Shown here piece by piece: positions 1-9,055 of a stretch of 9,055 nucleotides of DNA. The stretch is taken from contig JAEMRJ010000077.1 in NCBI GenBank assembly GCA_016463365.1, positions 1 to 9,055 on the forward strand. The letters run 5' to 3'. The first letter of the stretch is position 1. Every line of letters begins with the position of its first letter. A program made the position numbers and the translations under genes. This stretch comes from Thermoleophilaceae bacterium. Lineage in GTDB: Bacteria; Actinomycetota; Thermoleophilia; Solirubrobacterales; JACPNS01. Under the pieces are notes generated by a model, which did no database searches, had not been told where the DNA came from, and saw nothing but the letters and a program-made list of their open reading frames with translations.

Positions 1-120
1 TTCGAGGCCTTCGAAGCCCGCTGCGTGCTGCACGAGATCGACCACCTGGACGGCCTCCTCTTCCTCGACCGGGTCACGTCCCTCACGACCGACGTCTTCC
101 CCCGCAAAACACGGAAGTAA
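1..120 (+). CDS. def: Peptide deformylase, C-terminal fragment (5' end outside window)
   Basis: This is the last 39 residues of a protein that starts before the window. It reads in frame from base 1 to a TAA stop at 118-120. The peptide contains HEIDHLDG followed by LLFLDRV, the HExxH metal-binding motif of peptide deformylases with the usual downstream DHLdGxLfxDR block; the two His and the Glu are visible residues 11, 15 and 12. Peptide deformylase removes the formyl group from the N-terminal methionine of nascent proteins in the cytoplasm, using a bound metal (commonly Fe2+). The residue before the HExxH is Leu, where most family members have Gln (QHEIDHL); this is a minor departure. The tail is short and basic. 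The gene converges on the neighbouring SDR gene, and a large hairpin lies between them. The family call is firm; whether this is the main or a second deformylase cannot be judged here. Confidence 0.9.
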   Translation, partial: FEAFEARCVLHEIDHLDGLLFLDRVTSLTTDVFPRKTRK

Positions 121-189
121 GCCAAGAACTGCATCAACATACGTCTTGCCGACCCTCGGCAGGACGTATGTTGATGCAGGATCTGGCTT
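119..189. terminator. Large interrupted palindrome between convergent genes; candidate bidirectional terminator
   Basis: Bases 129-151 pair with 157-179 over 23 positions: 22 Watson-Crick pairs plus one T/G (146 with 162). The loop is five bases (152-156). The outer 17 bases are a perfect inverted repeat. After a 4x4 mismatch, AAGCCA at 119-124 can pair with TGGCTT at 184-189. The element occupies almost all of the space between the deformylase stop (118-120) and the stop of the convergent SDR (197-199). No T-run follows either arm, so it is not a classical intrinsic terminator. The stem is also longer than most terminators. A dispersed palindromic element is an alternative. Confidence 0.6.
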
Positions 190-196
190 GAAACCG

Positions 197-1000
197 CTAC
201 TTGCCCACGGGCCAGACGCGGTCGAGCAGTTCCAGCGTCATGCGCGTCGGCGCGATTTTGCTGGTGTAGACGCCGAACTTGTTCACGGATTTCGGTATGT
301 GGATGCGCTTCTGCTGGAACATCGCATCGATCCCGCTGCGTGCGCAGTCCTCGGCGCTCTGCCAGGCCCAGTCGGGCGAGTCGTTCTCCAGTTCTTCCTG
401 CCGATCACCGAAAAACTCTGTGCGCGTCGGGCCGGGGCAGAGCGCGGTGAAGCTCACCCCGGAGGCTTTGAACTCCTGAGAGAGACCCTGTGACAGCGAG
501 ATCACATAGGCCTTGGTCGCGGCATAGACCGCCTGTCGCGGCATCGGTTGAAAGCCTGCGGTGGAGGCGACGTTCAAGATCGCGCCGGCGCGCTTCTCGA
601 GCATCGGCGCCAACACCATGTGCGTCAGCGCCGTCAGTGCGACCACGTTGACCTCGAGCTGCTGCATCTGCGTTTCCAGCGGATCGGCCATGAACGAGCC
701 GTCCGTGCCGACGCCGGCATTGTTGATCAGGATCTCGACGTGGTCGCCCCGGGCCTCGATCGATTCGAGCAGCTCCTGGCGTTGCACGGCGTCAGTGACG
801 TCGCAGGCGACGGCGATCGCACGCACGTTGTACCGCTCTTCAAGCTCGGCGGCCAACTCGGTCAGTCGGTCGATCCGCCGGGCGGCGAGCGTGACGTTGT
901 AGCCGCGTTCGGCCATCTGGCGCGCAAACTCGGTGCCGATGCCTGCCGAGGCTCCTGTGATCAGACATGTACCGGTCTCTGACGGAATCGGAATGCTCAT
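197..1000 (-). CDS. Short-chain dehydrogenase/reductase (classical SDR, NADPH type)
   Basis: A 267-residue classical SDR, a cytoplasmic NAD(P)-dependent oxidoreductase with a Rossmann fold. Counting from the ATG at 1000, the cofactor motif TGASAGIG is at residues 15-22 and NNAG at 93-96. The catalytic tetrad is Asn118, Ser146, Tyr159 and Lys163 (in YAATK). Two arginines after the second strand (Arg41-Arg42) suggest NADP(H) rather than NAD(H). The length is normal for the family. A TTG at 1009 would add three residues (extended form M-T-P-M). I prefer the ATG at 1000 because a TAGATT -10-like box lies exactly seven bases upstream, which suits a leaderless transcript. The gene is divergent from the small gene at 1042 and convergent with deformylase. 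The C-terminal region (CPGPTRTEFF, then a helical tail) resembles the DltE/YqjQ-like group of SDRs, but the substrate cannot be deduced. Confidence 0.93.
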   Translation of the reverse strand: MSIPIPSETGTCLITGASAGIGTEFARQMAERGYNVTLAARRIDRLTELAAELEERYNVRAIAVACDVTDAVQRQELLESIEARGDHVEILINNAGVGTDGSFMADPLETQMQQLEVNVVALTALTHMVLAPMLEKRAGAILNVASTAGFQPMPRQAVYAATKAYVISLSQGLSQEFKASGVSFTALCPGPTRTEFFGDRQEELENDSPDWAWQSAEDCARSGIDAMFQQKRIHIPKSVNKFGVYTSKIAPTRMTLELLDRVWPVGK

Positions 1001-1007
1001 CGGCGTC

Positions 1008-1013
1008 AATCTA
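1008..1013 (-). promoter_or_regulatory. Candidate -10 box of leaderless promoter for the SDR gene at 197-1000
   Basis: On the minus strand TAGATT is followed by seven bases (gacgccg) and then the ATG at 1000. That spacing would place transcription initiation at or next to the start codon. There is no Shine-Dalgarno sequence and no convincing -35 box. The call rests on the TANNNT pattern recurring at the same place before the other non-operonic genes in this window. Confidence 0.55.
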
Positions 1014-1025
1014 GCCGAGCCGCTG

Positions 1026-1031
1026 TACCAT
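1026..1031 (+). promoter_or_regulatory. Candidate -10 box for the 87-residue protein gene
   Basis: TACCAT lies ten bases before the ATG at 1042, so a transcript would have a leader of only a few bases. No Shine-Dalgarno sequence is present in tcgggcgaacg. It is divergent from the TAGATT box of the SDR gene (1008-1013), 12 bases away. Confidence 0.45.
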
Positions 1032-1041
1032 CGGGCGAACG

Positions 1042-1305
1042 ATGGATGAATTCAACCTCTTTGGCGACCCCGACGAGCTCCAGCGCCGGATGGCCGAGTT
1101 CGCCGAGCAGATGCAGAGCGGCCAGCGCGTCGCCTGGGCAGACAACGCGATCAGCCTCGCTGTGGACATGACTGTCGCAGCGATCGAGAAGATCGACGCA
1201 TCGGGCAGCAGCGACGAGCAGGCGATGCAGATCCGCGATGCGATGCGGATGATCTTCCCCGAAGCTGTGACGCTCGTGCGCGAAGCTCGCGAAGGCCTGC
1301 AGTAA
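1042..1305 (+). CDS. Small hypothetical protein, 87 residues, acidic and helical
   Basis: The family is not recognised. The protein is soluble, with no signal peptide or membrane segment. It is rich in Glu, Asp, Ala, Met and Gln, and is probably mostly alpha-helical. A first helix spans roughly residues 10-27 (PDELQRRMAEFAEQMQ), a middle helix about 34-52, and a C-terminal helix about 58-86. There are many methionines and only one Gly-Ser-Ser turn (residues 55-57). It has no cysteine, so a metal or redox site built on Cys is excluded. The ATG at 1042 is the only early ATG and sits ten bases after a TACCAT -10-like box. It is its own transcription unit, divergent from an SDR and convergent, with a 7-base gap, on the UPF0104-type gene. 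Codon use and base composition match its neighbours, and it fills the gap between two real genes exactly, which argues that it is real. Confidence 0.7.
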   Translation: MDEFNLFGDPDELQRRMAEFAEQMQSGQRVAWADNAISLAVDMTVAAIEKIDASGSSDEQAMQIRDAMRMIFPEAVTLVREAREGLQ

Positions 1306-1312
1306 CGCCAGC

Positions 1313-2413
1313 TCAGTAGTCGCGCGGCGATTCCGGGATGTCCCGGTCGTACTCAAGCGTGGTCTGTGAGTCAGGCGTCGGGTGTTTTGAGGCCCACGTG
1401 TCGTCGCCGAAGTTGTCGTGCTCATAGGGCACGTCGGCCTCTTCGGCAGCCTTCTCGGCCTTGCCCGCCCGCATCAACGAGCGCCAGTCGGTCGTCTTGA
1501 AGACGAAGGCCAACGCCACCAGGCCGAAGACGGCGTTGAAGACCGCGAATGCCAGCTGCTGACCGACCGAGTATGCGGCGATCGCGGAGCTTGACGCCAC
1601 CCCGGCCAACGCAGTGAACAACAGCGCCTGCTGAACGCCCGCACCCTGCGGGGTCAGCGGGATCAGGCTGGAGGCGACCTGCACGGCGATCACGGTGAGC
1701 ACGATGTCGATAGAGGAGTTGATGTTGAACGCCTGCAGCATCAGCCAGATGCTCGCGAGCCGAAAGAGCAATGCGACAGACTGCGGCGCTGCCGCCCCGC
1801 GCATGTAGAGCGGGCGCGAGCGCAACAACGTGATGCCCTGCCGCACGTTGGCCCAGAAGTCGCGCACACGCACCGACAGGTAGGCAAACAGTGCGAGCAG
1901 CAGGATCGGCACCAGTGTCACGAAGAACACGGCGAAGCGTGGATGTTGCGCCAGAAACGACAGATCGAAGGCGTTCAGCTTTGAGAGGTCGGGGATCTCC
2001 GGAAAGACGCCCTGCGTGAAGCCGTAAGCAAGGATCAGCACACCGAGTGCCATGTCAAAAGGCAGCTCGACCATGAACGAGGAGCCGACGGTCGCGTAGT
2101 TGGAGCCGTGCACAGTGTGCTTGCCCAGGTACAACCGCACGAACGCCCCGGCGTGTGCGGGGACGACGCTGGAGATGCCGTTGCCCGCAATCTCGGCCGC
2201 CCAGATGTTGCGCCAGGGGAAGTTCTCGGTCGGGTAAGCGGCGCGCAGGCCGTTGTACCAGGCGCGGGTGCGTATCGAGAGGTAGAGCCCCTGGCAGGCC
2301 AGCGCCCCCAGCAGCGGCAGCACGTGGATCGCCGAGATGTTGTCGAGGAACTTCCCGACAGCGTCAAAGAACTGCGCGAATGAGCCGTCTGCGAGAGGCG
2401 GGGGCATCGCCAT
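1313..2413 (-). CDS. Multi-pass membrane protein, LPG-synthase-TM / UPF0104 flippase-like family
   Basis: A 366-residue integral membrane protein. Hydrophobic segments are visible at about residues 30-47, 70-92, 108-132, 158-182, 212-230, 234-256, 262-280 and 284-306. A hydrophilic, acidic tail (about 308-366) probably lies in the cytoplasm. The segment IPLTPQGAGVQQALLF (251-266) matches the family's conserved Pro-x-x-Pro-Gly-Gly-x-Gly-x-x-E block. Here the second Gly is Gln and the Glu is Gln, which is a departure. The NGISSVVPAHAGAFVRLYL stretch (78-96) matches the earlier conserved loop. Relatives include the transmembrane part of lysylphosphatidylglycerol synthase MprF and archaeal AglD; lipid or lipid-linked-sugar translocation is possible but not shown. 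The reading frame stays open upstream to 2602, but that would overlap the divergent SDR's coding region. ATG 2413 (MAMPPP) or ATG 2407 (MPPP) are the sensible starts, and 2407 has ideal leaderless spacing from TACGGT. Confidence 0.85.
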   Translation of the reverse strand: MAMPPPLADGSFAQFFDAVGKFLDNISAIHVLPLLGALACQGLYLSIRTRAWYNGLRAAYPTENFPWRNIWAAEIAGNGISSVVPAHAGAFVRLYLGKHTVHGSNYATVGSSFMVELPFDMALGVLILAYGFTQGVFPEIPDLSKLNAFDLSFLAQHPRFAVFFVTLVPILLLALFAYLSVRVRDFWANVRQGITLLRSRPLYMRGAAAPQSVALLFRLASIWLMLQAFNINSSIDIVLTVIAVQVASSLIPLTPQGAGVQQALLFTALAGVASSSAIAAYSVGQQLAFAVFNAVFGLVALAFVFKTTDWRSLMRAGKAEKAAEEADVPYEHDNFGDDTWASKHPTPDSQTTLEYDRDIPESPRDY

Positions 2414-2419
2414 ACCGTA
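2414..2419 (-). promoter_or_regulatory. Candidate -10 box for the UPF0104-family gene
   Basis: On the minus strand TACGGT directly abuts the ATG at 2413 and is six bases before the second in-frame ATG at 2407. The six-base spacing to 2407 is the classic leaderless geometry and argues for 2407 as the true start. A transcript starting there could not contain the 2413 ATG. There is no Shine-Dalgarno sequence. Confidence 0.5.
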
Positions 2420-2428
2420 GGCAACGCA

Positions 2429-2434
2429 TAGGAT
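2429..2434 (+). promoter_or_regulatory. Candidate -10 box of leaderless promoter for the SDR gene at 2441
   Basis: TAGGAT is followed by six bases (tgtcgc) and then the GTG at 2441, so the first transcribed base would be the G of the start codon. No Shine-Dalgarno sequence is present. It is divergent from the TACGGT box at 2414-2419, with nine bases between the two hexamers. Any -35 contacts would fall inside the neighbouring gene's coding sequence. Confidence 0.6.
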
Positions 2435-2440
2435 TGTCGC

Positions 2441-3217
2441 GTGAGTTTCTCGGGCAAGCGCATTCTGCTGACCGGCGCGGCCGGCGGCCTGGGCGAGATC
2501 ACCGCTGCGGCCTTCGCCGAAGCGGGCGCGACGCTGATCCTCAGCAGCCGCAACGAGGAGAAGCTCAACGAGATCGTCGCGGGCCTGCCCGGCGGGCCGC
2601 ACGAAGTGATCGCCGCTGATCTGATGCAGCCCGGCGCGCCCGAAGACGTGGTCGCCAGGGCCGGAAGGGTCGACATTCTCGTCGCCAACGCTGGACGCCC
2701 CGGCGGCTGGGCACTTGATGAAACGCCGGCCGACGAGATCGCATCCGTGATCCGCGTGAACTTCGAGGCCCCGATCCAGATGGTCAAGGCGGTGATCCCT
2801 CAGATGAAGGAGCGCAAAGACGGCCAGATCGTCCTGATCGCGTCGCTGGCAGGCAAGTTCGCCCTCCCCGACAGCACGATGTACTCAAGCACGAAGTCCG
2901 GCCTGCGCGCGTTCGGCTGGGCGCTGCGCCCCGAACTCGCGCGCGACAACATCGCCGTGACTGTCGTGACTCCGAGCTTCATCGGCGAGGTCGGTATGTT
3001 TGCCAAACGCAAGCGCAAGGCGCCGCCGATGGCGGGGATCGTCTCGCCCGACAAGTACACGAAGACGCTGCTTGCTGGCGTCGAGAAAGGCAGGGGCGAG
3101 GTCACCATCGCCACGCCTCAGCTCCGCGTGCTCTCGCAACTTTCGGTGCTCGCACCGCGCATCTTCGACTTCGCGTTTCGGCGCTCAGCGCCTCAGCGCA
3201 AGCCTGTCGACCAGTAG
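2441..3217 (+). CDS. Short-chain dehydrogenase/reductase (classical SDR)
   Basis: A 258-residue classical SDR with a GTG start. The Rossmann motif TGAAGGLG is at residues 11-18 and the NAG motif at 83-85. The catalytic tetrad is Asn107, Ser135, Tyr148 and Lys152 (YSSTK). Ser36-Arg37 after the second strand points to NADP(H). The region after the usual PG motif reads TPSFIGEVGMF (residues 176-186) where many members have PGxxxT. The C-terminal ~40 residues are basic and amphipathic (LSVLAPRIFDFAFRRSAP), so loose membrane association is possible. It is only distantly similar to the SDR at 197-1000 (different motif wording), so the two do not look like a recent duplication. It has its own -10-like box and is followed 27 bases later by the antiporter gene, which also has its own box. 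Substrate unknown. Confidence 0.93.
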   Translation: MSFSGKRILLTGAAGGLGEITAAAFAEAGATLILSSRNEEKLNEIVAGLPGGPHEVIAADLMQPGAPEDVVARAGRVDILVANAGRPGGWALDETPADEIASVIRVNFEAPIQMVKAVIPQMKERKDGQIVLIASLAGKFALPDSTMYSSTKSGLRAFGWALRPELARDNIAVTVVTPSFIGEVGMFAKRKRKAPPMAGIVSPDKYTKTLLAGVEKGRGEVTIATPQLRVLSQLSVLAPRIFDFAFRRSAPQRKPVDQ

Positions 3218-3228
3218 TCAGCCGCAAA

Positions 3229-3234
3229 TAGACT
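3229..3234 (+). promoter_or_regulatory. Candidate -10 box for the cation/proton antiporter gene
   Basis: TAGACT lies ten bases before the GTG at 3245, in the 27-base gap after the upstream SDR's stop (3215-3217). The antiporter therefore need not depend on read-through from the SDR. No purine-rich Shine-Dalgarno sequence is present in the cctgctgcag between the box and the start. Confidence 0.4.
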
Positions 3235-3244
3235 CCTGCTGCAG

Positions 3245-5029
3245 GTGGAGCACTCAGATTCAATATTGATCGCGGGTGTTCTGCTCGCGCTCGCAATCGC
3301 GACGACGCTCGTGGCTCGTCGAGCGCGCGTACCGGGCCTTGTGCTGTTCCTGATTCTCGGCATCGTCGTGGGGCCCGAGGGGCTGGGCATCGTCGAATTC
3401 GTCAGCCTCGACATGGCCCAGACCGTCGGCGTCGTCGCGCTGGCGCTGATCCTCTTCGAGGGCGGTCTGGCTTCCGGCTGGAAGGAGATCCAGCCGGTCT
3501 TCGGCGTGAGCATCTCGCTGGCGACGATCGGCACGCTTCTGACCGCCGTGATCACGGGTCTTGGCACGGCGTTCTTCCTCGACTACTCGACGCTTCAGGC
3601 GATGTTGATCGGCGGAATCGTCGCCAGCACCGACGGCGCGGCGGTCTTCGCGCTCTTGCGCGGATCGACGCTGAAGAAGCGCCTCGCGCGCACGCTTGAA
3701 GGCGAGGCCGGCCTCAACGACCCCGTGGCCATCCTGCTCGTGATCGGATTCATCGACTGGATCACGCTGCCTGACTACGGCGTGCTGGACATGGTCCTGC
3801 TGTTCGTCGAAGAGATGCTGATCGGCGCGGTTGTCGGGATCGCGATCGGGTTCATCGGCGTTCGCGGGATCCGCGCCGTCGGCAACGTGACTTCCGGTCT
3901 CTATCCGGTCGCGACCGTTGCGACCGCCGCATCGGCATTCGGGCTTGCTCAGGTCATTCACGGATCGGGGTTTCTCGCGGTGTACATCGCGGGGCTGATC
4001 CTCGGAAGCGCGCGGCTGCCAGCCAAGCGCGCCATCTCCGACTTTCATGACGGCATCGCGTGGGTCAGCCAGATCGCGGTGTTCCTTGTGCTCGGCCTTC
4101 TGTTTGCGCCGGGCTCGCTGAAGTCGCTGTGGGAGGAGGCGCTGATCGTGACGCTGCTGCTGATGTTTGTCGCGCGCCCGGTCGCGGTCTACGTCGCGAC
4201 GTTGTTTGCGAAGTTCGAATTCCGCGAGGTCGCGTTGCTGCAGTGGGCCGGCATGCGCGGCGCGGTGCCGATTGTGCTCGCGACATTTCCGCTGGTCGAC
4301 GGAATTGCCGATTCAGACGCGATCTACAACATCGTCTTCTTCGTCGTCCTTGCATCGGCGATCTTCCAGGGCACGACCTTCGAGTATTTCGCCAATCGCC
4401 TGAAACTCACGACCACTCATCGAGCGGTGGTTCCGCCGGTCATCCAGGCGGGCAACATCCGCAAACTTGGCGCGGAGTTCTTCGAGTTCCCGATTCGCGA
4501 GGGCGACGCGATCGCCGGGCACGTCGTGCGCGAACTACAGCTTCCGCGCGAAGCGCTCGTCAGCGTGATCGTGCGCGGCGAGGAAGCGCTGCTGCCGCGT
4601 GGATCGACGCAGCTTGAGGTGGGCGACCGCCTCCAGATTCTTGTGCGCGGCTACCTGGTCAAACGCATTGAGGAGCTTTTCGAGCTCTGGCGCGAGGGTC
4701 CGATCGGCGAGGAGGAGCGCGAGTACGCGAGGCCGATCGCCGGTCGTCCTGCGATCTTCTCGGTCAAGCCGTGGGAGGCCGACGCCGGCGACCAGGGTGA
4801 CCCGCGGGAGATCAACGGCAAAGCGGTGCTGCGCCGCGTGCGCATCCGCCACGATCAGCCCGGCGCGCTCGTCGTGCTCGAGGACGGGCGCTTTGCTGTG
4901 AGCAGCGGAGGGCTCGTGGCTGCCGGCAGCCCACCGCAGATCCGGGCCTTTGCCGTGCGCCGGATCGAGCGCTCGAAAACGCGCTCGGAACGCGCCTGGT
5001 GGCAGGAAGTGGCCGGCGCCGTCGCCTAG
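3245..5029 (+). CDS. CPA1-type K+(Na+)/H+ antiporter with C-terminal RCK_C domain (NhaP2/CvrA-like)
   Basis: A 594-residue inner-membrane antiporter exchanging a monovalent cation for protons; it would act in pH and K+/Na+ homeostasis. Residues 1 to about 380 form a Na+/H+-exchanger domain of roughly 12-13 hydrophobic segments. Key motifs are STDGAAVFALL (128-138) and EGEAGLNDPVA (152-162). The Asn158-Asp159 pair is the ion-binding position of the CPA1 family. GMRGAVPIVLATFPL (336-350) is the conserved segment near the end of the exchanger. Residues about 412-476 form an RCK_C/TrkA_C regulatory domain (GDAIAGHVVRELQLP, then GDRLQILVRG), the layout of K+/H+ antiporters such as NhaP2. Residues about 500-594 form a further soluble region that I do not recognise; some NhaP2 proteins carry a CorC/HlyC-type domain there. 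The GTG at 3245 gives a first membrane helix immediately. The stop overlaps that of the convergent MpaB-type gene. Ion preference is inferred only. Confidence 0.92.
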   Translation: MEHSDSILIAGVLLALAIATTLVARRARVPGLVLFLILGIVVGPEGLGIVEFVSLDMAQTVGVVALALILFEGGLASGWKEIQPVFGVSISLATIGTLLTAVITGLGTAFFLDYSTLQAMLIGGIVASTDGAAVFALLRGSTLKKRLARTLEGEAGLNDPVAILLVIGFIDWITLPDYGVLDMVLLFVEEMLIGAVVGIAIGFIGVRGIRAVGNVTSGLYPVATVATAASAFGLAQVIHGSGFLAVYIAGLILGSARLPAKRAISDFHDGIAWVSQIAVFLVLGLLFAPGSLKSLWEEALIVTLLLMFVARPVAVYVATLFAKFEFREVALLQWAGMRGAVPIVLATFPLVDGIADSDAIYNIVFFVVLASAIFQGTTFEYFANRLKLTTTHRAVVPPVIQAGNIRKLGAEFFEFPIREGDAIAGHVVRELQLPREALVSVIVRGEEALLPRGSTQLEVGDRLQILVRGYLVKRIEELFELWREGPIGEEEREYARPIAGRPAIFSVKPWEADAGDQGDPREINGKAVLRRVRIRHDQPGALVVLEDGRFAVSSGGLVAAGSPPQIRAFAVRRIERSKTRSERAWWQEVAGAVA

Positions 5030-5928
5030 CCGGACTTGCTCTTGGCGCGTTCGCGCGGCGGAACGTGTCCGACGGTCTCAAGATCTCGCGGGTTGCCGCG
5101 GTCCTTGCCGAAGAAGTTGATCAGATTGCGGTCCTTGCGGAAGACGCGGTAGGGCGTGGACTTCAGGTAGGTGCGCGCAACCATGTTGACCTGGAACTGG
5201 ATGAATGCCGGCGGCGCCTCGACGCCCATCGCCTCGCGCAACTTGGGATCGAGCAGGCCGGCGAGCGACTGGCGCGCCAGCCACTCGCGCTTGGGCAGCC
5301 AGGTCGGATACCAACGCAGCCAGTCCTGGATCAGGCCCTCGTAGCAACCGCGGCCGTCGACCGTGTTGGCGTAGTGCTCATCCTCGTAGGCGAGCATCCA
5401 TTCGAGAAAGCCCTCGCGCGTTGAAGCCGGCAGCTCGAGGCCCATCTCGCGGGCGATCCCGCACCAGAAGTTCCAGCGCGCTTCGCGGTCAACCGGGCTG
5501 AACGGGTTGACACCGAACTGCATGGCCAGACGGTCGGGCTCGAGCATCACGGTTGCGAGCGTGTAGAGCTTGAGTTCGTCGCTGATCAGGAAGCGGCTGT
5601 GGATCTCTTCCATGCGCTGGACGGCCGCGCGGCCTTCTTCTGATCTGTAGCCACGACGGTAGAACTCCGTGAAGAAGATGATCGTGTCGTTGTTGCGCTT
5701 GCGCGGACTGGTTGCGATGTCGCCGTTGCCGGAGCGATAGAGCACCTTTGCGATCGCCGGGATCGCGGACTGGCGTGAAAACGTGACGAGGTAGATCGAG
5801 TGCGCAAAGTAGGCGTCTGCGAACAGGACGTTCGAAACTTGTGCGGTGATCTCTTCGTCGTCGGCGACGGGGTCCAGCGAGTCGACGTAGCTGCGCAGTG
5901 CGCGGCCGGATGTCCAGTTGTCGAACAC
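5026..5928 (-). CDS. Oxygenase MpaB / latex-clearing-protein family (MPAB_Lcp_cat, DUF2236), putative haem protein
   Basis: A 300-residue soluble, helical protein. The core LYRSGNGDIATSPRKRNNDT (63-82), then GYRSEEGRAAVQRMEEIHSRFLI (93-115), then LYTLATVMLEPDRL (121-134) and FWCGIAREMGLELPAST (154-170), follows the pattern of bacterial MpaB-like proteins. These are relatives of fungal MpaB and of rubber oxygenase Lcp, which bind haem b. His110 in the EIHSRF segment is a likely haem-ligand candidate by analogy with Lcp. Family members oxidise lipids, isoprenoids or rubber, or have unknown substrates; none can be assigned here. The frame stays open to 6171, but that would overlap the divergent CPBP gene. 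The GTG at 5928 gives the expected N-terminus (LRSYVDSLDPVADDEEI) and has a TACCCT box ten bases upstream. A TTG at 5973 is an alternative, adding 15 residues. No signal peptide is visible, so it is probably cytoplasmic. Confidence 0.85.
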   Translation of the reverse strand: MFDNWTSGRALRSYVDSLDPVADDEEITAQVSNVLFADAYFAHSIYLVTFSRQSAIPAIAKVLYRSGNGDIATSPRKRNNDTIIFFTEFYRRGYRSEEGRAAVQRMEEIHSRFLISDELKLYTLATVMLEPDRLAMQFGVNPFSPVDREARWNFWCGIAREMGLELPASTREGFLEWMLAYEDEHYANTVDGRGCYEGLIQDWLRWYPTWLPKREWLARQSLAGLLDPKLREAMGVEAPPAFIQFQVNMVARTYLKSTPYRVFRKDRNLINFFGKDRGNPRDLETVGHVPPRERAKSKSG

Positions 5929-5938
5929 TCTGCTCGCG

Positions 5939-5944
5939 AGGGTA
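5939..5944 (-). promoter_or_regulatory. Candidate extended -10 box for the MpaB-type gene
   Basis: On the minus strand TACCCT lies ten bases before the GTG at 5928 and is preceded by TGT, which fits an extended -10 (TGN). A TTGACT hexamer at 5973-5968 resembles a -35 box, but its 23-base spacing to TACCCT is too long to count as support. No Shine-Dalgarno sequence is present. Confidence 0.45.
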
Positions 5945-5980
5945 ACAACCGATCTGGCTAGTCGGCCAGTCAATGAGTTG

Positions 5981-5994
5981 GCTTGTCGACAAGC
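5981..5994. promoter_or_regulatory. Perfect 14-bp palindrome in a divergent promoter region; candidate operator
   Basis: GCTTGTCGACAAGC equals its own reverse complement. It lies between the divergent MpaB-type gene (start 5928) and CPBP gene (start 6036). It is about 37 bases upstream of the TACCCT box of the first and 26 bases upstream of the TACGAT box of the second. That is a usual position for a dimeric regulator controlling both genes. No regulator gene lies beside it in the window, so the binding protein is unknown. Confidence 0.4.
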
Positions 5995-6020
5995 GAAATT
6001 TGATCGCGCTCCGCAGTTTC

Positions 6021-6026
6021 TACGAT
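6021..6026 (+). promoter_or_regulatory. Candidate -10 box for the CPBP protease gene
   Basis: TACGAT lies nine bases before the GTG at 6036. A TTTGAT/TTGATC stretch at 5999-6005 could act as a weak -35 element, with a 15-16 base spacer. An out-of-frame ATG occurs at 6029 inside the short leader. There is no Shine-Dalgarno sequence. Confidence 0.5.
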
Positions 6027-6035
6027 TGATGCACT

Positions 6036-6704
6036 GTGGCTCACGCGACTTCAAAGCTGACGCCGTTCTGGACCGGTGTCGTGGTGTTTGAGCTCGCGCT
6101 CTGCACCGCAGCAGTGTTGCTGGACCTGCTGCTTCCGGCCGTTCTGATCCTGATTCTCGCCGCCGTCTCACTGCGCGCGCGGCGTCAGCACTTCGCGGAC
6201 CTCGGATTCCGACGACCGCAATCCTGGTGGCGGCTGGTGGGGATAGTCCTCGCGCTGACTGCCGCTTGGACGCTGGTACAGATCGGGTTCTTCTTCCCGA
6301 TCCTTGAGCACGTCACAGGCGACCGGCAGGACCTCGCTGACTTTGAAGATCTGAAGGGGAACATCGCGATGTTGCTCGCGTTGATCGCGGCGAGTTGGAT
6401 ACTTGGCGCGCTGATCGAGGAGACCGCCTTTCGCGGGTTCGTCCAGACACGGCTCACGGACTTGACCGGTACGGGCACGACGGGCCTGGCTGCCGCGGTG
6501 ATCTTCACTTCAGCGTTGTTCGCGCTCATCCACACAGAGCAGGGCACGATCGGTGTCGCGGCGACATTCCTGGACGCGATCTTCTTCAGCGTGCTCAGGC
6601 TGCGCTTTGCAAACCTCTGGGCGGCGGTGCTCGCCCACGGCTTCAACAACACGATCGGGCTGATCGCGTTCTTCCTGGCCGGCCCGATCTACGGGCTCTG
6701 GTAG
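6036..6704 (+). CDS. CPBP family intramembrane glutamic endopeptidase (CAAX protease / Abi-like)
   Basis: A 222-residue integral membrane protein with about six to seven hydrophobic segments. The three signature motifs of the CPBP/Rce1 superfamily are present in order: EETAFRG with Glu128, Glu129 and Arg133; FALIH with Phe162 and His166; and HGFNN with His201 and Asn204-Asn205. Glu and His residues in these motifs form the active site in Rce1 and its archaeal homologue. Bacterial members process or inactivate peptides (for example bacteriocin immunity) or act as membrane proteases of unknown target. No bacteriocin, prenylated-CAAX or peptide gene is nearby, so the substrate is unknown. The GTG at 6036 is chosen because it follows the TACGAT box and precedes the first membrane helix. 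The stop is six bases from the stop of the convergent peroxiredoxin gene. Confidence 0.9.
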   Translation: MAHATSKLTPFWTGVVVFELALCTAAVLLDLLLPAVLILILAAVSLRARRQHFADLGFRRPQSWWRLVGIVLALTAAWTLVQIGFFFPILEHVTGDRQDLADFEDLKGNIAMLLALIAASWILGALIEETAFRGFVQTRLTDLTGTGTTGLAAAVIFTSALFALIHTEQGTIGVAATFLDAIFFSVLRLRFANLWAAVLAHGFNNTIGLIAFFLAGPIYGLW

Positions 6705-6710
6705 CCGGAG

Positions 6711-7178
6711 CTAGAGGTCTGCCAGCGCTTTGAGCACGAGGTCGTCGTGCTTCTTGGGCTGCACCTTGGGCAGGTACTCGGCGATCTTGCCGCTGGGCGA
6801 GATGATGAAGGTGCTGCGCTGCACGCCCATGTACTTCTTGCCATACATCGACTTCTCGACCCACTGGCCGTACTTCTCGGCGATCTTGTGGTCGGGGTCG
6901 CCGACCAGCTCGAACGGCAGCTTGTACTTCTTCTTGAAGGCGGCGAGCTTTGCGGGTTCGTCCGGTGAGACGCCGACGACGACGGCGCCGGCCTTCTTGT
7001 ACTCGCTGATGCGGTCGCGGATGCCGCAGGCCTGCGTCGTGCATCCCGGGGTGTCGGCTTTCGGGTAGAAGTACAGGACGAGCGTCTTGCCCTTGAAGTC
7101 GGCGAGCTTGACCGTCTTGTCGTCCTGGTTCTTGAGCGTGAAGGCGGGGGCTCTGTTTCCGGGCTGCGGTGCTGACAT
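6711..7178 (-). CDS. bcp: Thioredoxin-dependent thiol peroxidase, Bcp/PrxQ-type peroxiredoxin
   Basis: A 155-residue cytoplasmic peroxiredoxin that reduces hydrogen peroxide and organic hydroperoxides with electrons from thioredoxin. The AhpC-TSA fold is seen in order: PGNRAPAFTLKNQDDK (6-21), LVLYFYPKADTPGCTTQAC (33-51), VVVGVSPDEP (about 66-75), then FELVGDPDHKIAEKYG. The peroxidatic cysteine is Cys46 in the conserved TPGCT motif. Cys51, five residues on, is the resolving cysteine of atypical two-Cys Bcp enzymes. The length is typical of Bcp. The frame stays open upstream to 7355, but that would overlap the divergent RpiB-like gene. The ATG at 7178 gives the standard N-terminus and lies seven bases from a TAGGCT -10-like box. 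The gene is divergent from the isomerase-like gene with only 26 bases between the two start codons. Confidence 0.95.
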   Translation of the reverse strand: MSAPQPGNRAPAFTLKNQDDKTVKLADFKGKTLVLYFYPKADTPGCTTQACGIRDRISEYKKAGAVVVGVSPDEPAKLAAFKKKYKLPFELVGDPDHKIAEKYGQWVEKSMYGKKYMGVQRSTFIISPSGKIAEYLPKVQPKKHDDLVLKALADL

Positions 7179-7185
7179 GGCGGCA

Positions 7186-7191
7186 AGCCTA
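7186..7191 (-). promoter_or_regulatory. Candidate -10 box of leaderless promoter for the Bcp gene
   Basis: On the minus strand TAGGCT is followed by seven bases (tgccgcc) and then the ATG at 7178. It directly abuts the TATCGT box of the divergent gene at 7192-7197. No Shine-Dalgarno sequence is present. Confidence 0.6.
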
Positions 7192-7197
7192 TATCGT
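7192..7197 (+). promoter_or_regulatory. Candidate -10 box of leaderless promoter for the RpiB-like gene
   Basis: TATCGT is followed by seven bases (cggccgc) and then the ATG at 7205. The hexamer is immediately next to the opposing TAGGCT box at 7186-7191, so the two polymerases would compete for the same DNA. No Shine-Dalgarno sequence is present. Confidence 0.6.
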
Positions 7198-7204
7198 CGG
7201 CCGC

Positions 7205-7642
7205 ATGCGGATTGCAGTCTCCACTGATACTCGCGAAGGCGTTGCCGATGCGCTTGTTTCGCGGCTAGAGGCGGATGGGCATTCGGTGCTGCGCTTCGGA
7301 GCGTTTGACGCTTCTGCTCGCGCCGACTGGGCGTGGGGGAGCGAGGCTGCGGCAAGGGCGGTGGCTTCCGGTGCGGCCGATCAGGGCGTCGTGTGTTGCT
7401 GGACCGGGACCGGCGCTTCGATCGCGGCGAACAAGGTGCCCGGCGTGCGGGCGGCTTTGTGTGGCGATCCGGAGACGGCGGCCGGCGCGCGGAAGTGGAA
7501 TGACGCCAACGTGCTGGCGCTGTCTTTGCGGCTGGTCAGCGAGCCGATGCTGGGGGAGATCCTCACGGCGTGGTTCAGCTCCGAGCCAAGCGATGATCCT
7601 GACGACGCCGCCAACGTGGCGCACGTCGATCAGATCGCGTAG
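7205..7642 (+). CDS. RpiB/LacA/LacB-family sugar-phosphate isomerase-like protein with altered active site
   Basis: A 145-residue cytoplasmic protein of the ribose-5-phosphate isomerase B family. The fold markers are MRIAVSTD (1-8), the ASIAANKVPGVRAALC block (71-86) and WNDANVLALSLR (98-109), all close to RpiB. Cys65 aligns with the catalytic cysteine of RpiB, but the motif CGTGIG reads CWTGTG here. The SDHAG motif is STDTREG, so Asp8 is kept and the next His is Thr. The His of the HNDANVL motif is Trp98. These losses affect positions used for sugar ring opening in characterised RpiB enzymes, so ribose-5-phosphate isomerase activity should not be assumed. ATG 7205 is chosen over upstream starts (7169 overlaps bcp) because it begins the family N-terminus and follows TATCGT by seven bases. 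The ~20-residue tail is acidic. The specific substrate is unknown. Confidence 0.85.
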   Translation: MRIAVSTDTREGVADALVSRLEADGHSVLRFGAFDASARADWAWGSEAAARAVASGAADQGVVCCWTGTGASIAANKVPGVRAALCGDPETAAGARKWNDANVLALSLRLVSEPMLGEILTAWFSSEPSDDPDDAANVAHVDQIA

Positions 7643-7646
7643 AAGT

Positions 7647-7703
7647 TCGCAATTTGCGCGGCACCTCTGGCACCTGGTGCCAGAGGACGGTCGCAAATTG
7701 CGA
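7647..7703. terminator. 57-bp nested palindrome between convergent genes; candidate bidirectional terminator or dispersed palindromic element
   Basis: The element is symmetric about base 7675. The inner arms 7664-7674 and 7676-7686 are a perfect 11-base inverted repeat (CCTCTGGCACC / GGTGCCAGAGG). After five unpaired positions on each side, the outer arms 7647-7658 and 7692-7703 pair perfectly over 12 bases. Each outer arm also contains its own small palindrome (CGCAA-T-TTGCG and CGCAA-A-TTGCG). It begins four bases after the isomerase-like gene's stop and ends 30 bases before the stop of the convergent EamA gene. No T-run follows either side. Roles as terminator, REP-like repeat or paired binding site are all open. 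Confidence 0.6.
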
Positions 7704-7733
7704 CATTCAGGTGCGACGCGGGGGCTCGCAGCG

Positions 7734-8603
7734 CTACGCCGCAGCCAGCATCACAACACCAAGCAGCGCCATCACCACGCCGACCCGCTGGCTGACGGCC
7801 AGCCGCTCATGCAAAAAAACAAACGCCAGCATCACAGTGATCACCGGGTAGAGCGAGCTGACGACTGAGGTGATCGCGAGTGCGCCCTGCTGCGTTGCCG
7901 CAGCGAACGTGATGTTCGCCGTCACGTCGAAGAATCCGATCGAGATCGGGAACAGCCAACCGCTGCCGACCGGGCGCTCGCCCAGGGCGGACCGCCGCGT
8001 CACGCCGACAAGCAGGATCAGCACGACCGCGCCCAGCGTGGTCAGCTTCAGCACGGCAGCCGGCCAGTAGATCGACTCCTCGCCGGCCTCGGCGATCAGC
8101 GTGAAGATCGTGCCGAATCCGACTGCAGCGACGATCGCGAGCAGGACCGACCTGCGGTGTGTGGCCTCGTCGACGCCGGTCGTCTCGGCCTTGTCCTGTT
8201 CGCGCGAGGCAAGGATCACGCCGCAGACGGCGACGACAATCGCGAAGATCGCGAAGGGCGTAAGGGTCTCGCCGCGGCCGACCACGCCCCACAGCACCGG
8301 GATCGATGACCCGGTGGCCGTGATCGGGGCGACGATGCTCATCGTCCCGATCGCGAGCGCCTCATAGAACGCGGCCAGCGCGACCAGTCCGGCCAGCCCC
8401 GCCAAGGCAGAAATCGCCAGATCGCTCTGCGGCGGAACCGGGTCGCCGCTGATCAGGGAACCGGAGCCCGAAACCACCAGCCCGCCGAGCGAAGACGCAA
8501 GCAGCACCCAGAGCAGCGCATACCTGCGCGCAGCGATGCCGCCGAGAAAGTCGCCGGTGCCCCATGAAACCGCTGCCGAGAGGGCCAGCGCGATGGCGAG
8601 CAT
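7734..8603 (-). CDS. EamA-family (drug/metabolite transporter superfamily) permease
   Basis: A 289-residue inner-membrane transporter with about ten hydrophobic segments arranged as two EamA repeats. The first is roughly residues 2-131. The second is roughly 151-289, ending with SSLYPVITVMLAFVFLHERLAVSQRVGVVMALLGV, the hallmark end of an EamA repeat. The linker between the halves (about 133-150, REQDKAETTGVDEATHRR) is charged and probably cytoplasmic. Substrates in this superfamily range from amino acids and nucleotides to drugs; none can be assigned here. The ATG at 8603 is well supported: AGGAG lies six bases upstream, and the stop of the helicase gene is 13 bases upstream, so the two are probably co-transcribed. 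A run of seven T (minus strand, 7819-7813) occurs within the FVFLHE codons; it is notable in a GC-rich gene but the frame is intact. Confidence 0.92.
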   Translation of the reverse strand: MLAIALALSAAVSWGTGDFLGGIAARRYALLWVLLASSLGGLVVSGSGSLISGDPVPPQSDLAISALAGLAGLVALAAFYEALAIGTMSIVAPITATGSSIPVLWGVVGRGETLTPFAIFAIVVAVCGVILASREQDKAETTGVDEATHRRSVLLAIVAAVGFGTIFTLIAEAGEESIYWPAAVLKLTTLGAVVLILLVGVTRRSALGERPVGSGWLFPISIGFFDVTANITFAAATQQGALAITSVVSSLYPVITVMLAFVFLHERLAVSQRVGVVMALLGVVMLAAA

Positions 8604-8616: not shown

Positions 8617-9055
8617 CTAGGAGGTTTCTGCCACGACGGCGTCGGCGGCGACCGTCTGGCCGCGCAGCTGCGCGCCGTCGATTGCGCCGGCGACGCTCGC
8701 CGCCTTGTCGCTGGGCACCTGCATCAGTGTGTAACGGCTGAGCACGCGAACGCGGCGAATATCACTGCCGGTCAGGTCGCTCTTTGAGGTCACAAGCTCG
8801 ATCACGTCGGCAGGCTCCACGCCGCGCGACGTTCCGCCGTTGACGATCAGCAGGCTGAAGTCATCACCATCGAGTTCGATCTGGTTGGGCTTGAGGTGTC
8901 GCGGGTGACGCAGCTCGCCACGCTCGACCTCGGCCTCTGGCTCTGGCTCCGGCTCTGGCTCGGCCTCTGGCTCCGGCTCTGGCTCGGCCTCTGAAACCTC
9001 GGCCTCGGGCTGATCCTCGGTCACGACCTCTTCGGTCTTGGCCACGGGCGGACCC
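8617..9055 (-). CDS. DEAD-box RNA helicase, C-terminal part with DbpA-type RNA-binding domain (5' end outside window)
   Basis: The last 145 residues of a protein are visible and the frame is open to the window edge. Residues about 66-141 (FSLLIVNGGTSRGVEPADVIELV, LTGSDIRRVRVLSRYTLMQVP, LRGQTVAADAV) match the DbpA RNA-binding domain, which follows the helicase core in DeaD/CsdA/DbpA proteins. These proteins unwind RNA in ribosome assembly and cold adaptation. Before it lies a Pro-Glu-Ala linker of low complexity (about residues 22-44). A GTG at 9045 could start a 142-residue stand-alone protein. However, it has neither a Shine-Dalgarno sequence nor a -10 box in the ten visible upstream bases, so a C-terminal fragment is much more likely. 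The helicase core itself is not in the window; the call depends on the C-terminal domain alone. It is followed 13 bases later by the EamA gene. Confidence 0.75.
   Translation of the reverse strand, partial: GPPVAKTEEVVTEDQPEAEVSEAEPEPEPEAEPEPEPEPEAEVERGELRHPRHLKPNQIELDGDDFSLLIVNGGTSRGVEPADVIELVTSKSDLTGSDIRRVRVLSRYTLMQVPSDKAASVAGAIDGAQLRGQTVAADAVVAETS
8923..8993. repeat. Imperfect tandem repeat coding for a Pro-Glu-Ala linker
   Basis: A 30-base unit (8931-8960), a 24-base unit (8961-8984) and a partial 9-base unit (8985-8993) share the start CGGCCTCTGG. The two full units differ by one 6-base CTCTGG step. On the minus strand this codes for alternating Glu-Pro with occasional Ala in the helicase linker. 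All unit lengths are multiples of three, so slippage would change linker length without breaking the frame. Confidence 0.75.

What the first reader, a model, noticed from the sequence alone, without database searches (positions are those of the whole stretch)
1000..7205. Systematic leaderless start architecture: TANNNT 6-10 bases before every non-operonic start, no Shine-Dalgarno
Nine complete genes start a transcription unit (starts at 1000, 1042, 2407/2413, 2441, 3245, 5928, 6036, 7178, 7205). All have a TANNNT hexamer: TAGATT, TACCAT, TACGGT, TAGGAT, TAGACT, TACCCT, TACGAT, TAGGCT, TATCGT. Gaps to the start codon are 7, 10, 6 (using 2407), 6, 10, 10, 9, 7 and 7 bases. None has a purine-rich ribosome binding site. 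The one gene that appears to be second in an operon (8603) has AGGAG at six bases. In GC-rich DNA a TANNNT in such a narrow window should be uncommon, so nine of nine is hard to attribute to chance. Leaderless transcripts are common in actinobacteria and Deinococcus; here they seem to be the default.
Basis: partly seen in the sequence, partly recalled or inferred. Interest (0 to 1): 0.7.

Follow-up and report, generated by a model that had tools for sequence, protein, structure and literature searches.

The report
Leaderless gene starts, bare -10 boxes
In this actinobacterium, genes appear to be switched on by a tiny six-letter signal placed right at the start codon, so their messages carry little or no leader, and in its close relatives that signal has been largely cleared from the insides of genes, presumably because it would start stray transcription.

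Summary
In detail: all nine starts have the stated TANNNT at the stated gap. Only 15 TANNNT occur on both strands of the window, and nine are these boxes.

The nearest genome (G001, 82% identical at the antiporter) is Solirubrobacterales. There, 189 of 706 non-operonic starts have TANNNT at 6-10 nt, against 17 of 282 operon-internal starts and 31 in shuffles. The mark is conserved gene by gene with G002 (odds ratio 24.5). These are very probably sigma-A -10 boxes of leaderless or nearly leaderless genes, a kind known in actinobacteria. 'Default' is too strong.

It is the most avoided of 2304 three-base patterns. The purge is blind to a start codon downstream and nearly blind to a -35 TTG. It looks transcriptional: a -10-only promoter so simple that the genome reserves it. 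It is strong in only part of the class. Transcript ends were not measured.

The parts
1008..1013 (-). TAGATT, -10 box of the short-chain dehydrogenase gene 197-1000 (ATG at 1000, gap 7)
   Evidence: TAGATT at gap 7 in both L001 and L005
1026..1031 (+). TACCAT, -10 box of the 87-aa gene 1042-1305 (ATG, gap 10)
   Evidence: gap 10 in L001, 7 in L005
2414..2419 (-). TACGGT, -10 box of the LPG-synthase-type gene 1313-2407 (gap 6 to ATG 2407, gap 0 to in-frame ATG 2413); with 2413 it forms the self-complementary TACCGTA
   Evidence: TACCGTA kept in L001 and L005 but nearest in-frame ATG at gap 17 in L001, gaps 0 and 9 in L005
2429..2434 (+). TAGGAT, -10 box of the short-chain dehydrogenase gene 2441-3217 (GTG, gap 6)
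   Evidence: gap 7 in L001, 6 in L005
3229..3234 (+). TAGACT, -10 box of the Na+/H+ antiporter gene 3245-5029 (GTG, gap 10); gene is co-directional with its upstream neighbour
   Evidence: TAGACT at gap 10 in L001, 9 in L005; of 12 further antiporter rows, L010, L011 and L012 have a box at 6-10, L018 and L019 have one before an in-frame ATG slightly upstream, seven have none
5939..5944 (-). TACCCT, -10 box of the MPAB/Lcp-type gene 5026-5928 (GTG, gap 10)
   Evidence: TACTTT at gap 10 in L001 (start read by eye), TACCCT at gap 9 in L005
6021..6026 (+). TACGAT, -10 box of the CAAX-protease-like gene 6036-6704 (GTG, gap 9)
   Evidence: no orthologue row in L001 or L005
7186..7191 (-). TAGGCT, -10 box of the peroxiredoxin gene 6711-7178 (ATG, gap 7); abuts the box of 7205
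   Evidence: in L001 replaced by CAGGAG six bases before the ATG, no row for L005
7192..7197 (+). TATCGT, -10 box of the RpiB-like gene 7205-7642 (ATG, gap 7)
   Evidence: gap 6 in L001 and L005
8610..8614 (-). AGGAG, Shine-Dalgarno site of the operon-internal EamA-type gene 7734-8603 (spacing 6)

Best explanation
The nine TANNNT hexamers are -10 boxes of housekeeping (sigma-A type) promoters. RNA polymerase recognises them essentially through the -10 element alone and starts transcription about 7-9 nt downstream, at the start codon (gaps 6-7) or one to a few nucleotides before it (gaps 8-10). The mRNAs are therefore leaderless or nearly so and are translated without a Shine-Dalgarno site, while operon-internal genes more often carry one. 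Shown here: the boxes, their spacing, conservation, strand and position bias, and the purge.
For: Boxes and gaps. Six of nine kept at gaps 6-10 in both close relatives. Genome scale: G001 189 of 706 non-operonic against 17 of 282 internal starts, G002 98 of 432 against 6 of 172, shuffles 31.3 and 17.0. Gene-by-gene conservation: 55 both, 16 and 15 one only, 107 neither, of 193 pairs. No -35 information in 372 selected promoters. Pyrimidine-purine step at the start codon for gaps 6-7 and one base earlier for gaps 8-9. Purge: window 3/37.4, G001 1113/6100, G002 907/3559; most avoided of 2304 patterns; spacing-specific; both strands; graded like promoter strength; orientation-dependent between genes.
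Against: No 5' ends were measured, and the window's own genome was not available. Only about a quarter of non-operonic starts in relatives show the box, and 364 of 706 in G001 show neither box nor Shine-Dalgarno tetramer. Peroxiredoxin lost the box and LPG-synthase shifted its start in L001. The purge is strong in 12 and weak in 7 of 19 class genomes sampled. TGNTANNN not ending in T is itself at about 0.5, so part of the extended -10 effect is not specific to TANNNT; and TGNTANNNT is also rare in Streptomyces plasmids (1/21.5) and Rhodococcus pRHL1 (3/21.9).
Confidence: 0.82

Rival explanations
1. The hexamers are real -10 boxes, but the purge of TANNNT from genes has another cause, such as a DNA-binding protein, a mutational bias or a codon-pair effect.
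For: TAA/TTA (0.33) and other TA-containing patterns are also low in G001; the purge varies widely within the class; no experiment links it to transcription.
Against: Spacing-specific and T-specific (TAN2T 0.80, TAN4T 0.74, TANNNA 0.65), equal on both strands, strongest for TGN-extended and TANNAT forms, and reversed in promoter-direction intergenic DNA.
Confidence: 0.13
2. The boxes are -10 elements, but many of these genes also have upstream promoters and real leaders, so leaderless messages are minor.
For: 364 of 706 non-operonic G001 genes have neither box nor Shine-Dalgarno tetramer, so other modes exist; some divergent spacers are long enough.
Against: Three of the four divergent spacers in the window are 26, 33 and 41 nt, leaving no room for a leadered promoter outside the neighbouring gene; eight of nine lack a Shine-Dalgarno tetramer.
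Confidence: 0.1
3. Coincidence helped by picking start codons to fit.
For: One start (2407 rather than 2413) was chosen to fit; the window may have stood out because it is rich; runs in relatives reach only six.
Against: Shuffles never exceed 4 of 9; conservation in relatives; genome-scale enrichment.
Confidence: 0.01

Closest known systems
TA-led (leaderless) genes of Actinobacteria and Deinococcus-Thermus (Zheng et al. 2011, PMC3160421; passages seen)
   Same: TANNNT about 10-12 bp before the start codon, no Shine-Dalgarno, mostly first or single genes
   Different: Passages gave no mention of Rubrobacter or Conexibacter; here the lineage is Solirubrobacterales, and the hexamer is also purged from genes
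Mycobacterial -10-only promoters (M. tuberculosis, Cortes et al. 2013, PMC3898074; M. smegmatis, PMC6448022; passages seen)
   Same: TANNNT, no -35 consensus, TGN-extended form stronger, C at -1 and purine at +1, about a quarter of genes leaderless
   Different: No RbpA match in 10 related genomes here. Cortes et al. give about 16,400 TANNNT in the M. tuberculosis genome, which at 4.4 Mb (size recalled) is near 1.9 per kb per strand; G001 has 1.07
Selection against spurious -10 motifs (Froula and Francino 2007, PMC1939733; abstract and passages seen)
   Same: -10 motifs under-represented in coding DNA (24 of 42 genomes) and over-represented in regulatory DNA
   Different: By one method here TANNNT is depleted 5.5-fold (G001) and 3.9-fold (G002) against 1.2-fold in E. 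coli; their sizes are given as standard deviations, so the two are not directly comparable
Bidirectional (symmetrical) promoters (Middlemiss et al. 2023, PMC10268837; abstract and outline seen)
   Same: Divergent genes started from closely packed, opposed -10 boxes
   Different: At 7178/7205 the boxes abut without sharing bases; two compact pairs in relatives do share the TA

Membership tests
Actinobacterial leaderless (TA-led) genes | TANNNT at the distance of a -10 box from the start codon | tested here: met
   Nine of nine in the window; enriched in relatives
Actinobacterial leaderless (TA-led) genes | No Shine-Dalgarno site | tested here: met
   Eight of nine lack AGGA/GGAG/GAGG; 2441 has AGGA inside its box, not kept in orthologues. 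In G001, 21 of 189 boxed non-operonic starts also have a tetramer
Actinobacterial leaderless (TA-led) genes | Transcript 5' end at or within a few nucleotides of the start codon | not testable with these tools
   No RNA data; only the inferred pyrimidine-purine step
Mycobacterial-type -10-only promoter | No -35 consensus | tested here: met
   372 promoters in relatives; purge hardly depends on TTG at spacers 16-18 (0.187 against 0.230 elsewhere)
Mycobacterial-type -10-only promoter | RbpA as partner of the housekeeping polymerase (recalled) | tested here: not met
   PF13397 in 0 of 10 relatives, control C. glutamicum positive; window's own genome not testable
Selection against spurious -10 motifs | -10 motif under-represented in coding DNA and over-represented in promoter regions | tested here: met
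Bidirectional symmetrical promoters | Opposed -10 boxes overlap on shared bases and drive both directions | tested here: inconclusive
   7186-7191 and 7192-7197 abut; TACCGTA at 2413-2419 is self-complementary; pairs 23 and 25 bp apart in relatives share the TA; use in both directions unknown

The most novel reading that the evidence does not exclude
In part of this class a bare TANNNT, without a -35 and without RbpA, is close to sufficient for transcription initiation, and selection has reserved the hexamer for gene starts by purging about 75-80% of it, and nearly all TGNTANNNT, from both strands of genes. Promoters and leaderless starts could then be read from raw sequence, and avoidance strength would give a scale of promoter strength without experiments.
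Probability: 0.4. Interest if true: 0.62.

Novelty: new variant of a known kind. Interest (0 to 1): 0.45.

Why it matters
Leaderless starts are an established but patchily mapped mode of bacterial gene expression. Here a lineage for which my searches found no transcript maps shows it clearly enough to be read from sequence. The strong, graded loss of the -10 hexamer from genes is a natural experiment on what counts as a promoter: it ranks promoter variants by how far they have been removed, and raises the question of how a polymerase without RbpA or a -35 keeps its specificity.

Tried and rejected
Chance and start picking: rejected. General AT-rich start context: control hexamers and control gaps are low. 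A hidden -35: none seen. Purge caused by leaderless mis-starts: rejected, since the ratio is 0.14-0.26 with ATG/GTG at gaps 6-9 and 0.13-0.28 at the other gaps tested. Purge tied to leaderless use across the class: not settled; I compared by hand the whole-genome counts of TANNNT-N7-ATG and TANNNT-N15-ATG, and the excess per Mb is not clearly higher in strong purgers; the built-in reversed control is confounded by the purge. Divergent spacing: clear in G001, not in G002. Gene calling in 72% GC Solirubrobacter (G006) was poor, so its start statistics were not used. Comparison organisms other than E. coli are plasmids or chromids. Of the stretches fetched from G002, two short contigs (L093, L100) were left out of the scripts. 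Of 20 class loci fetched, 19 gave coding sequence.
Full report
WHAT WAS CHECKED. The window is 65% GC and its genes look ordinary: two short-chain dehydrogenases, an LPG-synthase-type membrane protein, a Na+/H+ antiporter, an MPAB/Lcp-type protein, a CAAX-protease-like protein, a peroxiredoxin, an RpiB-like isomerase, an EamA transporter and an 87-aa protein without a Pfam match. Only 15 TANNNT exist on both strands of 9055 bases. Nine are these boxes, one is the other half of the self-complementary TACCGTA at 2413-2419, two lie in a long inverted repeat, and three lie inside genes. Shuffling the nine upstream regions gave 0.39 hits on average and at most 4 in 20,000 rounds. The 8603 gene has AGGAG at six bases, as stated.

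CORRECTIONS. The antiporter gene at 3245 is co-directional, 27 nt after its neighbour's stop, so its own promoter is an inference, though its TAGACT is kept in two relatives. TAGGAT before 2441 contains AGGA, a weak Shine-Dalgarno match absent from both orthologues. The LPG-synthase start is ambiguous (2413 or 2407).

WHERE IT COMES FROM. No genome is held for the window. The antiporter's best match, 82% identity, lies in an uncultured Solirubrobacterales genome (L001 = G001); next is L005 = G002 at 71%.

CONSERVATION. Six boxes are kept at gaps 6-10 in both L001 and L005. Gaps (window/L001/L005) are 7/7/7 for the first dehydrogenase, 10/10/7 for the 87-aa gene, 6/7/6 for the second dehydrogenase, 10/10/9 for the antiporter, 10/10/9 for MPAB (L001 start read by eye) and 7/6/6 for RpiB. 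Three are not: LPG-synthase keeps TACCGTA but its nearest in-frame ATG is at gap 17 in L001 (0 and 9 in L005); peroxiredoxin has CAGGAG instead in L001 and no row for L005; CAAX has no row for either. In 12 further antiporter rows, three have a box at 6-10, two have one before an in-frame ATG slightly upstream, and seven have none. Across G001 and G002, 294 reciprocal best hits (median identity 67.6%) include 193 pairs that are non-operonic in both. Of these 55 have the box in both, 16 in G001 only, 15 in G002 only and 107 in neither (odds ratio 24.5, p 4e-20).

GENOME-SCALE TEST IN RELATIVES. I took 1.13 Mb of G001 and 0.76 Mb of G002 and called genes with a simple codon-hexamer model that ignores upstream sequence. 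TANNNT counts rise abruptly at gap 6 in both genomes and fall after gap 9 in G001, less sharply in G002. Non-operonic against internal starts: G001 189 of 706 against 17 of 282; G002 98 of 432 against 6 of 172; shuffled upstream regions gave 31.3 and 17.0. Allowing near-best starts, 40% of divergent G001 genes have a box, with control gaps at 4-5%. Of the 706 G001 starts, 153 have a Shine-Dalgarno tetramer alone, 168 a box alone, 21 both and 364 neither. Leaderless starts are thus a major class, not the only one. Runs of consecutive hits reach six in G001 and four in G002, so nine of nine is unusual. In G001 the share is highest when divergent genes are 35-100 bp apart (58 of 92 genes) and low beyond 250 bp (11 of 64), but G002 does not show this (8 of 26 and 14 of 44; summed).

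PROMOTER ANATOMY. In 372 putative promoters of G001 and G002, selected for TANNNT, no -35 information is visible and the base after the box is A in only 3%. At gaps 6-7 the pyrimidine-purine step lies at the start codon (0.64 and 0.60); at gaps 8-9 it lies one base earlier (0.49 and 0.51); at gap 10 it is undecided (0.40 and 0.42). The purine share at -1 differs between gaps 6-7 and 8-9 (ATG starts only; p 0.0012 in G001, 0.017 in G002). I read this as zero-nucleotide leaders for gaps 6-7 and one-nucleotide leaders for gaps 8-9; it is inference. A G at -1 is also common before internal ATGs, so the clearer signal is the C at -1 for gaps 6-7.

THE PURGE. I compared coding sequences with versions in which synonymous codons were shuffled within each gene. 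Both strands together, TANNNT observed/expected is 3/37.4 in the window, 1113/6100 (0.18) in G001, 907/3559 (0.25) in G002, 0.28 in G006, 0.84 in E. coli K-12, 0.70 in S. meliloti pSymB, 0.60 in D. deserti plasmid 3, 0.575 in two Streptomyces plasmids and 0.43 in Rhodococcus pRHL1; sense-strand only, Thermus pTT27 gives 29/47. All comparison records but E. coli are plasmids or chromids, and Rhodococcus is intermediate. Among 2304 three-base patterns spanning up to 10 nt, TANNNT and its complement are the most avoided in both G001 and G002; TAA/TTA comes next (0.33 and 0.58). It is spacing-specific: TAN2T 0.80 and TAN4T 0.74 in G001. It is nearly equal on both strands and seen in all codon phases. 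It is graded like promoter strength: TGNTANNNT 6/374 and 3/220, TANNNTA 14/550 and 14/342, TANNAT 0.075 and 0.111. Two cautions from the same call: TGNTANNN not ending in T is itself at 0.50 and 0.57, and TGNTANNNT is also rare in Streptomyces (1/21.5) and Rhodococcus (3/21.9) records. The purge does not depend on ATG/GTG at gaps 6-9 and hardly on TTG at a -35 position (0.187 against 0.230). Between genes it depends on orientation: in G001 tandem intergenics hold 5.97 per kb in the promoter direction and 2.00 in reverse, and convergent ones 1.71; G002 gives 5.78, 2.53 and 1.12-1.24. This fits selection against spurious transcription initiation. Across 19 genomes of G001's class, about 2-18 kb of coding sequence each, the ratio runs from 0.17 to 0.80: 12 at or below 0.42 and 7 at or above 0.56. 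It is thus strong in part of the class only, and some estimates rest on few expected sites.

MACHINERY. RbpA (PF13397) was found in 0 of 10 relatives while the Corynebacterium control was positive. CarD-domain matches were found in 10 of 10, two each, one in an open frame above 1,000 aa that I take to be Mfd and one in a frame of 231-353 aa. The primary sigma factor was not singled out among many region-4 matches.

COMPARISON WITH WHAT IS KNOWN. TANNNT-led leaderless genes in Actinobacteria are known (PMC3160421, passages), as are -10-only promoters with stronger TGN forms in M. tuberculosis (PMC3898074, passages), -10-dominated promoters without a -35 in M. smegmatis (PMC6448022, passages), and 33% zero-leader mRNAs in C. 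glutamicum, which has a weak -35 (PMC3890552, passages). Under-representation of -10 motifs in coding DNA is known in 24 of 42 genomes (PMC1939733, abstract and passages). One 2026 paper, seen only as a listing (PMC13220856), says E. coli genomic DNA, intragenic parts included, holds more promoters than random DNA, which speaks against a strong general purge in E. coli and agrees with the mild 0.84 here. For Thermoleophilia, Solirubrobacter and Rubrobacter, searches with 'leaderless' gave only incidental papers (listings, and passages of PMC10783764). Searches on avoidance (listings) showed no report of this purge in the class; the library covers open-licence papers only.

VERDICT. The leaderless reading is very probably right for most of these starts and is a known kind. 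'Default' overstates it. The more surprising property is the near-exclusion of the -10 hexamer from genes: under one uniform method an extreme version of a known effect, still untested by experiment.

Noticed in passing
window 119-189 and 7642-7708: Long inverted repeats (34-nt arms 85% and 33-nt arms 79% complementary) in the two intergenic stretches between convergent genes; possible two-way terminators, without a clear T run.
   Followed up: no
window 2413-2419: Self-complementary TACCGTA that could act as a -10 box in both directions; TACCGTA (or its complement) is also present at the same place in L001 and L005, although TANNNTA is about 25- to 40-fold depleted in coding DNA of G001 and G002.
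   Followed up: partly
L001 17590-17710: The peroxiredoxin gene has a Shine-Dalgarno site (CAGGAG) in L001 where the window has a leaderless-type box: an apparent switch of initiation mode in one gene.
   Followed up: partly
genomes G001-G010: No RbpA (PF13397) match in 10 of 10 related genomes, although RbpA is thought of as an actinobacterial polymerase partner (recalled); CarD-domain proteins are present in all 10. No paper in the library holds both 'RbpA' and 'Thermoleophilia'.
   Followed up: partly
window 8617-9055: The 5'-truncated gene on the minus strand encodes a Glu/Pro-rich repeat stretch (EPEPEPEAEPEPEPEPEAE) before a conserved-looking domain.
   Followed up: no
window 1-120: The truncated first gene on the plus strand ends with HEIDHLDG, the peptide deformylase motif (recalled, no search made).
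   Followed up: no
G011-G030, 20 kb or less each: TANNNT avoidance differs up to about fourfold between genomes of one class even at similar GC (G011 0.23 at 61% GC, G016 0.79 at 62%).
   Followed up: partly
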